Assembly: GCA_018268675.1 (NCBI GenBank)
Contig: JAFDWB010000094.1
Coordinates: 124,001 to 188,000, forward strand
DNA from: Actinomycetota bacterium
Lineage (GTDB): Bacteria; Actinomycetota; Thermoleophilia; Solirubrobacterales; 70-9
DNA: 64,000 bases
Reading direction: 5' to 3'
The translations under genes and the position numbers were made by a program. Below the pieces are notes generated by a model. The model was not told where the DNA came from. It saw nothing but the letters and a program-made list of their open reading frames with translations, and made no database searches. Position 1 is the first letter of the stretch, and every line of letters starts with the position of its first letter. Shown piece by piece: positions 23,818-28,331 of this stretch.

Positions 23818-24310
23818 GGAGCGGCCGCGGGCGGCGCTCCTCACGGTCTCGAGCTCCAAGGCCCGCGGCGAGGGGGAGGACGAGGGCGGCGCACGGATGG
23901 CGGCGTTGGCGGAGCGCCTCGGGCTCGAGATCGCCGCCCGCGAGGTGGTCGCCGACGAACGGGCGACGATCGAGGCGCGCCTGCTCCATTTCTGCGACGA
24001 GCTCGGCGTCGACCTCGCCCTCACCGGCGGTGGCACCGGCCTCACCTACGACGACGTCACCCCGGAGGCGACCCGCGCGGTGCTCGAGCGCGAGGCGCCC
24101 GGGATCGCGGAGGCGATCCGCCTCGCCTCCCGCGACCACACCCGCCACTGGATGCTCTCGCGCGGCGTCGCCGGCACCCGCGGGCACACGCTGATCGTCA
24201 ATTTGCCGGGGAATCCCGCTGCGGTCGATCAGGCGGGCGAGGTGCTCGCGCCGGTGCTGCCGCATGCCCTCGACCTGCTCGCCGGGCGGCGCCGCGGGCA
24301 CGGCGGCTGA
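23810..24310 (+). CDS. Molybdopterin adenylyltransferase (Mog/MoaB family)
   Basis: A 166-residue protein that adenylates molybdopterin before metal insertion by MoeA. Motifs: ALLTVSSSKARGEGEDEGGA, DLALTGGGTGLTYDDVTPEA (the GGTG/T substrate loop), REAPGIAEAIRLAS and TLIVNLPGNPAAVDQAGEVL. GGTGLTYDDVTPE is the Mog/MoaB hallmark. GTG start at 23810 with GGAGGAGG ahead. It is the adenylation partner for the MoeA in the same operon. Confidence 0.9.
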   Translation: MAEERPRAALLTVSSSKARGEGEDEGGARMAALAERLGLEIAAREVVADERATIEARLLHFCDELGVDLALTGGGTGLTYDDVTPEATRAVLEREAPGIAEAIRLASRDHTRHWMLSRGVAGTRGHTLIVNLPGNPAAVDQAGEVLAPVLPHALDLLAGRRRGHGG

Positions 24311-24313
24311 GGC

Positions 24314-25342
24314 ATGGCCCGGGGGTCGGACGGGATGACCGAGTACGGTCTGGGGGTGCCCCTCGAGGATGCCCACGGACGCTTGATCGGGGACCTGCGG
24401 GTCTCGGTGACCGACCGCTGCAACTTCCGCTGCCACTACTGCATGCCGGTCGAGGGCATGCCGTGGATCCCGCGCGAGGAGATCCTCACCTTCGAGGAGA
24501 TCGAGCGCCTGGTCGCGTTGCTGGTCGGCCTCGGCATCGCCGACGTGCGGCTGACCGGGGGCGAGCCGCTGGTGCGGCGCGAATTTCCGGCGCTGGTCGC
24601 GCGCCTGCGGGGGATCGAGGGCATCCATGACCTCTCGCTGACCACCAACGGCTACCTGCTCGAGGCGCAGGCCGCCGACCTCGTCGCCGCCGGGATCGAC
24701 CGCGTCAACGTCTCGATCGACAGCCTCGCCCGCGCCCGCTTCTTCGAGGTCACCCGCCGCGACGCGCTCGACCGGGTGCTGGCCGGACTCGACGCGATCG
24801 CCGCCTTCCCCGAGGTCAGCCCGGTGAAGGTGAACGCGGTGCCGATGCCGGGCTTCGACCGCGACGACGTGATCCGCTTCTGCGACCTCGCCCGCGAGCG
24901 CGGCTTCCAGGTCCGCTTCATCGAGTTCATGCCGCTCGACGGCGACCGCAACTGGACCGCCGAGCAGGTGCTGACGGGGGCGCAGGTGCGGGCGATGGTC
25001 GAGGAGGTCCACCCGCTCCTCGAGCGCCCGCGCGAGCCACACGCGACGGCGCGGGTCTTCGCCTTCGCCGACGGCCGCGGCGAGATCGGCTTCGTCAACC
25101 CGGTGTCAGAACCGTTCTGCGGCGACTGCAACCGCCTCCGCCTCACCGCCGACGGGCGTCTGCGCACCTGCCTCTTCTCCCAGCACGAGACCGATCTCCG
25201 CGGCCCCCTGCGGGCGGGCGCCGACGACGCCGAGCTGGAGTCGATCGTCCGCGCCGCGGTCTGGCGCAAGGAGCTGAAGCACCGCATCGACGAGCCCGGC
25301 TTCCGGCCGCCGGCCCGCACCATGAGCGCGATCGGCGGCTGA
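24314..25342 (+). CDS. moaA: GTP 3',8-cyclase (radical SAM)
   Basis: A 342-residue radical SAM enzyme making the first Moco precursor from GTP. The SAM cluster is CNFRCHYC (Cys36, 40, 43); the second [4Fe-4S] site is CGDCNRLRLTADGRLRTC; the family C-terminal di-glycine is present (MSAIGG). Other marks: VRLTGGEPLVRREFPALVAR, GIDRVNVSIDSL and QVRFIEFMPL. All catalytic features are intact. It follows Mog/MoaB by three bases. Confidence 0.96.
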   Translation: MARGSDGMTEYGLGVPLEDAHGRLIGDLRVSVTDRCNFRCHYCMPVEGMPWIPREEILTFEEIERLVALLVGLGIADVRLTGGEPLVRREFPALVARLRGIEGIHDLSLTTNGYLLEAQAADLVAAGIDRVNVSIDSLARARFFEVTRRDALDRVLAGLDAIAAFPEVSPVKVNAVPMPGFDRDDVIRFCDLARERGFQVRFIEFMPLDGDRNWTAEQVLTGAQVRAMVEEVHPLLERPREPHATARVFAFADGRGEIGFVNPVSEPFCGDCNRLRLTADGRLRTCLFSQHETDLRGPLRAGADDAELESIVRAAVWRKELKHRIDEPGFRPPARTMSAIGG

Positions 25343-25343
25343 G

Positions 25344-25565
25344 ATGCCCGACATGACGCGCGCCGAGTGGCTCCGCGCCTTCTGCGCCGAGATCGGCGCC
25401 GAGCCGCCGAGCGACGACGAGGCCGACGCCCTCCTCGAACTGGCCGCGATCGCCGCCCACTCCTCCGAGCGCACCGCCGCCCCGCTTGCCTGCTGGGTGG
25501 CGGGACGGACGGGCCGGTCCCCCGCCGAGCTCCGCGAGATCGCCCGCGGCGTCAGCGCGGGGTAA
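25344..25565 (+). CDS. Small DUF6457-like protein of the Moco operon
   Basis: A 73-residue acidic helical protein starting MPDMTRAEWLRAFCAEIGAE and containing DALLELAAIAAHSSERTAAP and LACWVAGRTGRSPAELREIA. This is the pattern of the DUF6457 family, which is often found in or fused to Moco genes such as mobA. It begins one base after the moaA stop (TGAGATG) and ends the operon. Possible chaperone or regulatory helper in Moco synthesis; role unproven. Confidence 0.8.
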   Translation: MPDMTRAEWLRAFCAEIGAEPPSDDEADALLELAAIAAHSSERTAAPLACWVAGRTGRSPAELREIARGVSAG

Positions 25566-25684
25566 GGGTTCGGGCCCCTAGCGCCAGCTGCCGCCCGACG
25601 GCGCGCCCCCCTCATGCTTCGGCGGTTATGAGGGCGACGGGCGCGCCTAGGCGTGCGCCGGGACCAGGGAGCCCCGGCCTTCCC

Positions 25685-25721
25685 GTGTTCCCTACTTGCA
25701 CATAGGCCAAGTAGGGAACAC
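25685..25721. repeat. Dispersed palindrome, family A, copy 1
   Basis: GTGTTCCCTACTTG (25685-25698) pairs perfectly with CAAGTAGGGAACAC (25708-25721) around a 9-base loop. Flanks CCCCGGCCTTCC before and CGCAGGG after are shared with copy 2 at 54052-54090, as is a CCTAGGC-like stretch about 30 bases upstream. It lies in the convergent gap 25566-25900, which holds no gene. Confidence 0.8.
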
Positions 25722-25754
25722 CGCAGGGGCCGACCGACCGGGCCCGGGCCACAC

Positions 25755-25859
25755 CGCGGTCGTCCTTTCCCACCCTCCCCCCGAGCGCGGTCGACCTGAC
25801 CCGCGCCATAGGTGGGAAGGGACGACCGCGCCCCCGCGACCGCGGGTTAGGTCGACCGC
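25755..25859. repeat. Two interleaved long inverted repeats
   Basis: Arm 1L CGCGGTCGTCCTTTCCCACC (25755-25774) pairs with 1R GGTGGGAAGGGACGACCGCG (25811-25830), 19 of 20 bases plus a possible G-U. Arm 2L GCGGTCGACCTGACCCGCG (25787-25805) pairs with 2R CGCGGGTTAGGTCGACCGC (25841-25859), 18 of 19. The order is 1L-2L-1R-2R, so the helices cannot nest: they form a pseudoknot or alternate. 1L and 2L also share GCGGTCG. Located between convergent Moco operon and fdhD. Confidence 0.8.
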
Positions 25860-25900
25860 ACCCTCTCTGTGCGCCGCCGGGGCACCGGCCGGCGTCGGCT

Positions 25901-26653
25901 CTACCCCCGCACGCGCTCCGCGCCTGCGTACACGTTGGTGCTGCCGCGGCGGGTGAAGCCGGCGAGGGTCATGTGGCGGTCGGTGGCGAGGGCGATGGCG
26001 AGGGTGCTGGGGGCGCCGACGCCGACCAGGATCGGGGCGCCGGCGACGGCCGCCTTCTGGACCAGCTCGAAGGAGAGGCGGCCGCTGACGCAGAGGATGC
26101 CGTCGGTGAGGGGGAGGTGGCCGTCGAGGAGGGCCCGTCCCACGACCTTGTCCATCGCGTTGTGGCGGCCGACGTCCTCGCGCGCGATCAGGAGGTTGCC
26201 GCGGGCGTCGAAGAGGCCGGTGGCGTGGACGCCGCCGGTGAGCTCGAAGGTCGGCTGCTGGAGGCGGTCCGGGAGGGCGACGAGAAGGGATCGGTCGACC
26301 ACCGGGCCGGGACCGAGAGGGGCGCTCGCCACCGCGACCTCCTCCAACGCCCCCTTGCCGCACACCCCGCACGAGGAGGTCGTGTAGAAGCGACGCTCGC
26401 CCGGGTCGCGAAGGAGAGGCCCGGCGACTTCGACCGTGTTGGCGGCGAAATCGGCGGTGAGGCCGGCCTCGTGCGGCCCGTCGATCAGGCCCTCGCCGTA
26501 GAGGAAGCCGAGCGCCAGCTCCTCGTCGTGCCCGGGCGTGCGCATCGTGACGCTCAGCGGGCGGCCGTCGACGCGGATCTCGAGCGGCTCCTCGATCGCC
26601 ACCGCGTCGCGCTTGCCGTCCCGCTCGACCTCCTCCCAGGCGCGCATCGTCAT
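25901..26653 (-). CDS. fdhD: Formate dehydrogenase sulfur carrier
   Basis: A 250-residue protein that carries sulfur from a cysteine desulfurase to the Mo-bisMGD cofactor, needed for active formate dehydrogenase. The CxxC-type loop is TTSSCGVCGKGALEEV; others are IEEPLEIRVDGRPLSVTMRT, HDEELALGFLYGEGLI, HATGLFDARGNLLIAREDVG, RHNAMDKVVGRALLDG and SGRLSFELVQKAAVAGAPIL. The ATG at 26653 fits MTMRAWEEVERDGKRDAVAI. It faces the Moco operon tail to tail rather than lying in the fdh operon. Confidence 0.94.
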   Translation of the reverse strand: MTMRAWEEVERDGKRDAVAIEEPLEIRVDGRPLSVTMRTPGHDEELALGFLYGEGLIDGPHEAGLTADFAANTVEVAGPLLRDPGERRFYTTSSCGVCGKGALEEVAVASAPLGPGPVVDRSLLVALPDRLQQPTFELTGGVHATGLFDARGNLLIAREDVGRHNAMDKVVGRALLDGHLPLTDGILCVSGRLSFELVQKAAVAGAPILVGVGAPSTLAIALATDRHMTLAGFTRRGSTNVYAGAERVRG

Positions 26654-26700
26654 CGGACCGAGGTTAGCCGCCGACCGCGATCGGGTTTCGCGGCGGGAAG

Positions 26701-27555
26701 TCAGCCGACGCTGCGGGCGCCGATCAGGTGGGAGCCCCAGTAGCCGCTGTTCAGCGGGTGTTCCATCACGCCCTGGGACGTCGCCGAGATCGCCGTTTCG
26801 GGGCCGAGGGCGATGCCGACGTGCGAGGCGCCCGGCCCGTCGGTGTCGAAGAAGACGAGGTCGCCGGCGGTGATTTCCGTGAGGTTGACCGGTTCGCCGA
26901 ATTCGAACTGGGCGAAGCTCGTGCGCGGCAGCTGAATCCCGGCCTGGGCGAAGGCGTAGACCATCAGCCCGGAGCAGTCGAACGAGGTGGGCCCGGTGGC
27001 GCCCCACTGGTAGGGCGCCCCGATCGCGGCCCGCGCGGCTTCGATCGCCGGCAGGACCGAGGTCGGCGCGGCGGCGGTCGGCGGGGGAGGCGCCTTGGGC
27101 GCGGGCGCCGTCACCGGGATCCGCAGCAGGAGCAGGACGCGAACGTGCGGGCGGCCGTCCGCGGTCAGGTGGTGGGCGCGCTGGAAGCGGCGGATCGCGG
27201 CGCGGGTCTGGGGGCCGAGGACGCCGTCGACGGGAACCCGGAGCTTGCGCTGCAGGCGCATGATCTGGCTGCGGGTGAGCCGCGCGACCGGCCCGCCGCC
27301 GGCTTCTGGAGCGGGGGCCGGGGCGGTTTCGGTGGGCGCCGGTTCGGTCGGCACCGGTTCCGGAGGGGCGCTCGCGCTCGTCGGCGCCGCACCGCCGGGA
27401 GCCGCGGCACCACCGGTCGTCGCCGCGTTCGCGGACGCCGCGCCCGCGAGCGCCATCAACAGCACCGCCGCGGCGATCCGCAGGGTCAGGGACCGCCGAT
27501 AGTCCCGGCCGCTTCGCCGGGCGCTCGGGGTGGGGTTCGTCTGGCCTCGCTCCAT
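26701..27555 (-). CDS. Secreted NlpC/P60 peptidase with peptidoglycan-binding domain
   Basis: A 284-residue exported hydrolase. Signal peptide: basic RDYRRSLTLRIAAAVLLMAL then AGAASANAA. After a Pro/Ala linker, residues about 85-130 form a PG_binding_1 domain (LTRSQIMRLQRKLRVPVDGV, LGPQTRAAIRRFQRAH). The C-terminal NlpC/P60 domain has APYQWGATGPTSFDCSGLMV with the catalytic Cys, then AGDLVFFDTDGPGASHVGIA with the His. It would cut peptidoglycan stem peptides. Start ATG 27555. A ydaO-type c-di-AMP riboswitch lies immediately upstream. Confidence 0.9.
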   Translation of the reverse strand: MERGQTNPTPSARRSGRDYRRSLTLRIAAAVLLMALAGAASANAATTGGAAAPGGAAPTSASAPPEPVPTEPAPTETAPAPAPEAGGGPVARLTRSQIMRLQRKLRVPVDGVLGPQTRAAIRRFQRAHHLTADGRPHVRVLLLLRIPVTAPAPKAPPPPTAAAPTSVLPAIEAARAAIGAPYQWGATGPTSFDCSGLMVYAFAQAGIQLPRTSFAQFEFGEPVNLTEITAGDLVFFDTDGPGASHVGIALGPETAISATSQGVMEHPLNSGYWGSHLIGARSVG

Positions 27556-27559
27556 CGTT

Positions 27560-27700
27560 GAAATGCCTGCGAGGTGAGCTGACGGGCTCGCGCTCAACGT
27601 GCGCTACGTCCGAAGACGATTCGCCCCAGGCCGCCACTTCGGCGACCGGTGGTTCCCCCGCTCCTCGGATCCTCGGGGACCCGACGATTAGGCAGACCGA
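27560..27700 (-). ncRNA. ydaO/yuaA-type c-di-AMP riboswitch
   Basis: Read on the minus strand, the leader contains GGAGCGGGGGAACCAC near 27650, then GGGGCGAATC near 27625 and CCGTCAGCTCACCTCGCAGG near 27575, in the order and wording of the ydaO-yuaA riboswitch. It ends about five bases before the NlpC/P60 start. In actinobacteria this riboswitch controls cell-wall peptidase genes and turns them off when c-di-AMP is high. Boundaries are approximate. Confidence 0.85.
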
Positions 27701-27770
27701 CACTCAAGCACATCGAGGCGACGCCGTCCAGGGCAGATCGATCGGCCGCCCCCACAAGGGGGCCGACCGC

Positions 27771-28331
27771 CTACCCGAGCTGGGCGACCAGGACGGCGGT
27801 GCCGAAGAGGAAGGCGGCGCCCGTGGCGGCGGCCACCGGTGCGGTCGCCGGGCCGCCGTGGACGCCGGTCGTGTGGACGACGGCGTGGCCCTTGCCGCGG
27901 GCGATCAGGTGTCGGTTGACGGGCACGGTCACGGCCGCGGCGATCGCGAGGGCGAAGCTCAGGCTCCCCCAGAACAGCAGGGTGCCGAGGCCCGCGTCCA
28001 TCGCCCCCGGCACGGCGATGACGACGAGGTTGTCGATCAGCTCCATCGTCGCGATGCTCAGCGTGTCGGCGGCGAGCGCGATCGGGATCACCGCACCGAG
28101 CGCGAGGCCCGCGCGGAGCAGCGGCAGGCTCGTCAGGCCGTAGCCGAAGCCGAAGGCGAGGACGGTCACCAGCACGACGGTCGCCAGGTTCGAGAAGCCG
28201 AAGGCGGTGCCGATCGCCATCCCGCCGATCTCGCCGATCGCGCAGCCGGTCAGGCAGTGCAGGGTCGCCGAGATGGCGGTGGCGGTGAGGGCGCGCCCGT
28301 CAGGGGGCGAGTGGTCGTGTGCGGCTTGCAT
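27771..28331 (-). CDS. DUF4396 integral membrane protein
   Basis: A 186-residue membrane protein. Its core ATAISATLHCLTGCAIGEIG followed by GMAIGTAFGFSN and four more hydrophobic segments match the DUF4396 family. His and Cys in LHCLTGC could bind a metal within the membrane. The N-terminus is His-containing (MQAAHDHSPPDG) and a loop has GKGHAVVHTTGVHGG. A CsoR-like palindrome lies 11 bases upstream of its ATG. Copper-linked transport or protection is a fair inference, but no csoR or copA is present in the window. Confidence 0.82.
   Translation of the reverse strand: MQAAHDHSPPDGRALTATAISATLHCLTGCAIGEIGGMAIGTAFGFSNLATVVLVTVLAFGFGYGLTSLPLLRAGLALGAVIPIALAADTLSIATMELIDNLVVIAVPGAMDAGLGTLLFWGSLSFALAIAAAVTVPVNRHLIARGKGHAVVHTTGVHGGPATAPVAAATGAAFLFGTAVLVAQLG

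What the first reader, a model, noticed from the sequence alone, without database searches (positions are those of the whole stretch)
25755..25859. Two long interleaved inverted repeats: pseudoknot or two-state element
Arms in order 1L-2L-1R-2R with 19/20 and 18/19 pairing cannot be nested. Their sequences also share GCGGTCG, so cross-pairing is possible. In DNA this could be a cruciform/recombinase substrate; in RNA a pseudoknot or switch between two terminators. It lies between converging moaA operon and fdhD, two units that act together in Moco enzyme formation.
Basis: seen in the sequence. Interest (0 to 1): 0.76.

Follow-up and report, generated by a model that had tools for sequence, protein, structure and literature searches.

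The report
Self-nested copy of a dispersed palindrome
The odd "interleaved" hairpin arms between moaA and fdhD are one copy of a small palindromic repeat, nested inside an inverted copy of itself, that is scattered through this actinobacterium and its close relatives at the 3' ends of genes; it is a real and little-described repeat family, not a riboswitch-like pseudoknot.

Summary
The arms are real: 25755-25774/25811-25830 and 25787-25805/25841-25859, order 1L-2L-1R-2R, absent from shuffles. All four arms are the same half-site. 2L-CCATA-1R (25785-25831) is a 47-nt imperfect palindrome that also occurs alone. 1L+2R is a second, inverted copy whose centre is replaced by the first. This inversion makes the crossed pairs look best; a nested fold scores almost the same. 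The unit is dispersed in this genome and in four congeners (about 45 places in one), half as singles, half as arrays. Here it sits in a mosaic repeat with parts at 40 or more other places. In the 85,000-genome collection scanned, exact degenerate matches were confined to three MAGs that correspond to congeners. Copies avoid divergent gaps (0 of 51) and favour gene 3' ends. Other species carry 47-nt palindromes with different but compensated stems, some at the same tmk-holB junction. No Y1 (RAYT-type) transposase, no U-tract and no unpaired GTAG/CGTC tag was found. The two full copies in this genome show no compensatory change for the crossed pairs. Verdict: REP-like dispersed palindrome family with a self-nested architecture. 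Dispersal and nesting are shown; a bidirectional 3'-end hairpin role is inferred; the mobiliser is unknown.

The parts
25755..25774 (-). arm 1L: half of the outer, inverted copy of the unit
   Evidence: its sequence plus 2R equals the reverse complement of the inner unit with the centre missing
25785..25831 (+). inner 47-nt palindromic unit (arms 2L 25787-25805 and 1R 25811-25830, centre CCATA)
   Evidence: covariance-model hit 65.8 bits in own genome (the model was built from units including this one); alignment A1
25787..25805 (+). arm 2L
25811..25830 (+). arm 1R
25841..25859 (-). arm 2R: other half of the outer, inverted copy
25566..25900 (.). whole intergenic mosaic repeat containing the element; parts recur at 40 or more places in the genome
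25600..25647 (.). neighbouring palindrome module H5 (GGCGCGCCCCCCTCAT...ATGAGGG..GGGCGCGCC), dispersed
25685..25721 (.). neighbouring palindrome module H1 (GTGTTCCCTACTTG-CACATAGGC-CAAGTAGGGAACAC), dispersed
24314..25342 (+). moaA (Radical_SAM + Mob_synth_C)
25344..25565 (+). small DUF6457 gene, last gene of the rightward unit
25901..26653 (-). fdhD (FdhD-NarQ), convergent
   Evidence: orthologues with their own 3' palindromes

Best explanation
It is one copy of a small dispersed palindromic repeat (REP-like, non-coding) found in one genus of Solirubrobacterales. The unit is a 47-nt imperfect palindrome, consensus GCGCGGTCGTCCTAACC-GGCGCTATAGGTG-GGTTAGGACGACCGCGC. At this locus a unit sits in the centre of an inverted copy of itself, which gives the order 1L-2L-1R-2R. 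Shown: dispersal, single and array forms, presence/absence between orthologous sites, location at gene 3' ends, and compensated stems between species. Inferred: the units spread as non-autonomous mobile DNA by an unidentified, non-Y1 activity and persist where a hairpin is harmless or useful, at 3' ends. Between convergent genes the near-symmetric hairpin could protect, process or terminate both transcripts (that functional step: about 40%).
For: Own-genome search: one further full copy, a near-full copy and about a dozen partial copies. Congeners: 87 model matches counting both strands in G006 (about 45 places), 20 G003, 19 G008, 26 G007, 15 G000. Pattern scan of about 85,000 genomes: 25 stretches, all in three MAGs matching G006, G008 and G003. 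31 of 66 units single, 35 scored as arrays; listed outer half-units end just before the CTATA centre. Unit contexts: 26 convergent, 25 tandem, 0 divergent, against background gaps over 100 nt of 24/60/36 (P about 1e-8 to 7e-7; convergent enrichment p = 9e-5). Insertion polymorphism: in-frame element in the kinase-propeller linker of G006 and G003, absent in the G007 and G008 orthologues; tmk-holB junction empty in G003, G002, G009 and occupied in eight others. Stem compensation in 20 diverse 47-mers: 59 double-change cells against 16.6 shuffled, 0/500.
Against: No mobilising enzyme identified; no clear target-site duplication. Most divergent 47-mers in A2 came from a structure-aware model or palindrome scan, so their pairing is partly selected for. 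Among the closest 32 copies covariation is weak (11/500). No strand asymmetry of wobble pairs (35 T.G vs 23 A.C, 18 from one column) and no orientation preference (17 vs 9), so an RNA function on one strand is not indicated. No U-tract terminator. Gene calls come from a simple codon model of my own, and background gaps are from G000 only while copies come from five genomes.
Confidence: 0.82

Rival explanations
1. A structured RNA (pseudoknot or two-state switch between 1L:1R and 2L:2R) that coordinates expression of the moa unit and fdhD.
For: Two crossed helices of 19-20 bp; competing folds within 4-5 kcal/mol on either strand; folding energy z -4.2 (+) and -2.8 (-) against shuffles.
Against: Same module at many unrelated loci; crossed layout not seen in the arrays read from congeners; arm differences between the two full G000 copies are not compensatory; no Rfam match near threshold; the fdhD 3' regions of G006, G007 and G005 show other palindromes instead.
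Confidence: 0.04
2. Primarily a bidirectional transcription terminator or 3'-end stabilising hairpin under selection, whose repeated sequence is secondary (hairpins copied between sites because they work).
For: 0 of 51 units in divergent gaps; 20 of 54 scored units within 30 nt of a gene end; orthologous fdhD and tmk-holB sites carry different palindromes in different species; compensated stems.
Against: No U-tract; copies inside coding genes and in the tmk-holB junction, where one supplies the apparent start codon of holB; the same 3' bias is reported for REP elements (PMC3733652) and can come from purifying selection against promoter insertions.
Confidence: 0.3
3. DNA-level recognition site (recombinase, nucleoid or uptake signal) with two half-sites at fixed spacing.
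For: Nearly invariant length (47 in almost all units read) and strongly conserved GGTCG/CGACC half-sites across species; no strand asymmetry.
Against: The half-site alone is not over-represented in 346 kb of the genome (32 vs 36 expected), so it is not an uptake-sequence type signal; several unrelated arm families coexist in one genome.
Confidence: 0.12
4. REP/RAYT system member mobilised by a Y1 (IS200/IS605-type) transposase.
For: Short extragenic palindromes with a REP-like distribution (PMC3733652).
Against: No PF01797 match in any of 12 genus genomes, while controls ring; no unpaired GTAG or CGTC tag at the unit ends.
Confidence: 0.05

Closest known systems
REP / BIME elements (GTAG- and CGTC-tagged superfamilies, PMC3733652)
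   Same: Short dispersed extragenic palindromes, several families per genome, between convergent or tandem genes, some inside genes; CGTC REPs likewise lack a known transposase.
   Different: 17-bp stems plus 13-nt centre (47 nt) instead of the 8-9 bp CGTC stems, no unpaired GTAG/CGTC tag, no Y1 transposase in the genus, nested LL..RR arrays rather than head-to-head or tail-to-tail dimers.
Rickettsia palindromic elements (RPE)
   Same: Palindromic repeats that can also sit in frame inside protein genes.
   Different: Mainly extragenic here; 47-nt unit with different sequence and self-nesting. Comparison partly from general knowledge.
BOX / ERIC / NEMIS-type mosaic or MITE repeats
   Same: Composite intergenic repeats built of palindromic modules (here H5-H1-H2-H3-tail).
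   Different: No clear terminal inverted repeats with target duplication were found. Comparison from general knowledge.
Intrinsic bidirectional transcription terminators
   Same: Symmetric stable hairpins at convergent 3' ends, compensated stems between species.
   Different: No U-tract on either strand; many copies of the same sequence per genome; some copies inside an operon junction or coding sequence.

Membership tests
REP (GTAG/CGTC tagged) | short dispersed extragenic palindrome at gene 3' ends | tested here: met
REP (GTAG/CGTC tagged) | unpaired GTAG or CGTC tetranucleotide at one end | tested here: not met
   alignment A1 of 32 units: CGTC occurs only inside the paired stem, no conserved unpaired end tag
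REP (GTAG/CGTC tagged) | associated RAYT (Y1_Tnp) gene | tested here: not met
   PF01797 absent from 12 of 12 genus genomes, controls positive; this feature defines GTAG REPs, CGTC REPs lack it
BIME | alternating adjacent REPs (head-to-head or tail-to-tail dimers) | tested here: not met
   arms are ordered LL..RR (nested), not LRLR
MITE | terminal inverted repeats with target-site duplication | tested here: inconclusive
   presence/absence sites found; ATGA-like repeat flanks the tmk-holB insert in some species but may simply be the gene's own stop and start
Intrinsic terminator | hairpin followed by U-tract | tested here: not met
   0 terminator-like sites in 24000-28000
Intrinsic terminator | transcript 3' ends at the hairpin | not testable with these tools
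   needs Term-seq or RNA-seq
Known structured RNA (Rfam) | match at gathering threshold | tested here: not met
   three weak microRNA hits far below gathering score, all on the H1 hairpin
DNA uptake sequence | short signal over-represented also within genes | tested here: not met
   GCGGTCGWCC 32 observed vs 36 expected in 346 kb
Pseudoknot / switch RNA | compensatory changes supporting both crossed helices | tested here: not met
   window vs C93:103480 copy: none of the arm differences is compensatory; G006/G003 arrays read have the other layout; only two full copies could be compared

The most novel reading that the evidence does not exclude
A lineage-wide class of 47-nt palindromes whose length stays fixed while the stem sequence turns over with full compensation, even at the same orthologous junction (tmk-holB: identical stop-to-centre distance of 27 nt with four different stems in four species), implying a protein or RNA system that reads structure and spacing and re-targets the same sites, with no known transposase.
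Probability: 0.22. Interest if true: 0.68.

Novelty: new variant of a known kind. Interest (0 to 1): 0.42.

Why it matters
Dispersed palindromes are usually explained by RAYT transposases in Proteobacteria. Here is a copy-rich example in an actinobacterial lineage without Y1 transposases, with strict unit length, self-nesting half-unit arrays and different palindromes occupying the same gene junction in related species. That makes the open question of how untagged, transposase-less REP-like repeats spread and why they settle at gene ends testable by comparing close relatives.

Tried and rejected
Pseudoknot/switch RNA (no conservation of layout, non-compensatory differences, nested fold nearly as stable). 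Canonical terminator (no U-tract). Rfam families (none). REP/RAYT (no Y1_Tnp, no unpaired tag). DNA uptake signal (half-site not enriched). One-strand RNA function (no wobble or orientation asymmetry). Simple slippage of half-units alone: listed outer half-units in different arrays stop at the same place just before the centre, and in G000 the outer copy is inverted, so slippage does not explain everything; but unequal counts such as 4 and 2 with identical linkers show that it also happens. C16:44355, which has 1L and 2R but no inner unit, keeps remnants of the linkers, so I read it as a deletion and not as an empty pre-insertion site. The automatic array counts include some weak single-mismatch arms, so the L/R numbers are approximate. 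My first energy for the nested fold used a wrong register; corrected.

Full report
WHAT IS THERE. The two inverted repeats exist exactly as described: 25755-25774/25811-25830 and 25787-25805/25841-25859, both 95% complementary. Arms this long and this good do not occur in shuffles of the window. The gap lies between the converging moaA unit and fdhD; a small DUF6457 gene (25344-25565) is the last gene on the left.

WHY THEY ARE INTERLEAVED. All four arms are versions of one half-site, GCGGTCGWCC plus 9-10 inner bases. The inner pair, 2L-CCATA-1R (25785-25831), is a complete 47-nt imperfect palindrome. The outer pair, 1L and 2R, is the reverse complement of that unit with its centre replaced by linkers and the inner unit. 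Because outer and inner copies point in opposite directions, and each unit is slightly asymmetric (ACCCGCG on one side, CCCACC on the other), the best matches are the crossed ones. A nested fold (2L:1R inside 1L:2R) is nearly as stable: -62.2 kcal/mol, against -66.0 for 1L:1R and -61.2 for 2L:2R.

IT IS A DISPERSED REPEAT. In the window's own genome (G000; 4.2 Mb, 95 contigs) there is one other full copy, C93:103480-103598, 88% identical, one near-full copy at C89:57491, and about a dozen partial copies. The whole gap 25566-25900 is one copy of a mosaic of palindromic modules whose parts recur at 40 or more other places, mostly at 80-93% identity. Congeners carry the 47-nt unit too: 87 model matches counting both strands in G006 (about 45 places), 26 in G007, 20 in G003, 19 in G008, 15 in G000. 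The window's own genome may be left out of that scan.

FORMS. Of 66 units scored, 31 are single palindromes and 35 were scored as arrays with extra left or right half-units, up to four on one side (counts approximate). In G006 and G003 the outer half-units I read run the same way as the inner unit; in G000 (window, C93:103480) the outer copy is inverted. Listed outer half-units stop just before the central CTATA. Insertion of one unit into the centre of another, plus later slippage, fits best but is inferred.

PLACE. Unique unit places in non-coding gaps: 26 convergent, 25 tandem, 0 divergent, against 24/60/36 background gaps over 100 nt in the G000 sample. Twenty of 54 scored units lie within 30 nt of a gene end; the median distance is about 60 nt. 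An unbiased palindrome scan of about 450 kb of G000 shows many other families of 41-50 nt palindromes (65 hits in C87 against 10 in a shuffle; part of the real hits lie inside genes and may be chance), with the same avoidance of divergent gaps (3 of 45 divergent gaps over 60 nt against 13 of 25 convergent; p = 3e-5).

MOBILITY AND CONSERVATION. An element sits in frame in the linker of a kinase-propeller gene in G006 and G003 but not in G007 and G008. The tmk-holB junction is empty in G003, G002 and G009; it holds the 47-nt unit in G000 and G007, an array in G006, and palindromes with other stems in G010, G001, G004, G005 and G011 (in G008 the locus I read could not be judged). In four of these the distance from the tmk stop to the palindrome centre is the same 27 nt. 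The G004 stem belongs to its own dispersed family in G004 and G010, so independent insertion at a favoured site is as good an explanation as descent. For single junctions the palindrome score is only near or slightly above the best of 300 shuffles. In a set of 20 diverse 47-mers, 12 of 17 pairs show changes on both sides: 59 cells against 16.6 expected, 0 of 500 shuffles. Most of that set was found with a structure-aware model or a palindrome scan, so pairing is partly selected for. Among the 32 closest copies covariation is weak.

HOW IT MOST LIKELY WORKS. Shown: a dispersed, insertion-polymorphic, palindromic repeat at gene 3' ends. Inferred: spread by an unidentified activity, since no Y1 transposase was found in 12 genus genomes, and tolerance or use as a symmetric 3'-end hairpin between convergent genes. 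No strand or orientation preference was detected, which fits a DNA-level or two-way role better than a one-strand RNA element. No U-tract terminator was found.

RELATION TO KNOWN THINGS. The closest kind is REP elements (PMC3733652): same distribution, some inside genes, CGTC REPs also lacking a transposase. It differs in stem length, lack of an unpaired GTAG or CGTC tag, absence of Y1_Tnp, and nested rather than head-to-head arrays. I therefore call it REP-like and not a REP. A literature search for palindromic repeats in this class of bacteria found nothing relevant in the held library; subscription papers were not searchable.

Noticed in passing
L011:2492-2538 (G000:C92:90191-90237) and L077:2494-2540 (G007): The unit lies at the tmk-holB junction; a G-to-T difference in its right arm (AAAGGACG to AAATGACG) gives an ATG in frame with holB, the apparent start codon there.
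   Followed up: partly
L203-L214, tmk-holB junction of 12 genus members: Eight species have a palindrome directly after the tmk stop, with several unrelated stems; in four the centre is exactly 27 nt from the stop codon.
   Followed up: partly
L215 (G006) and L222 (G003): The array element sits in frame in the linker of a protein kinase-like protein fused to a beta-propeller; G007 and G008 orthologues lack it.
   Followed up: partly
window 9169, 9368, 31899, 32048, 45535, 45718, 54070 (palindrome centres) and many places in G000:C87: A dozen or more further families of 41-50 nt near-perfect intergenic palindromes, e.g. CGGCCATCCCCCTCAT, CAGCTGTTCCTTTTGCCG, GTTGATGGGCCGAAAA.
   Followed up: partly
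L028, L070, L073 and window 31899, 45535: Palindromes with a similar loop (around CCACAGCCTGCCTGGG) but different stems.
   Followed up: no
window about 22800, 29900 and 31000: ORF translations there share PPTLVxVSxTSVV / RYxDKRRGR-like stretches, suggesting another dispersed hairpin family (GACGCTTGTC...GACAAGCGTC).
   Followed up: no
G010, G004, G011, G005 (L229-L240): A second dispersed palindrome family, GCGGTTGNCACTTGT-GCCCTGTGGGC-GACAAGTGGCAACCGC, often a few nt after stop codons.
   Followed up: partly
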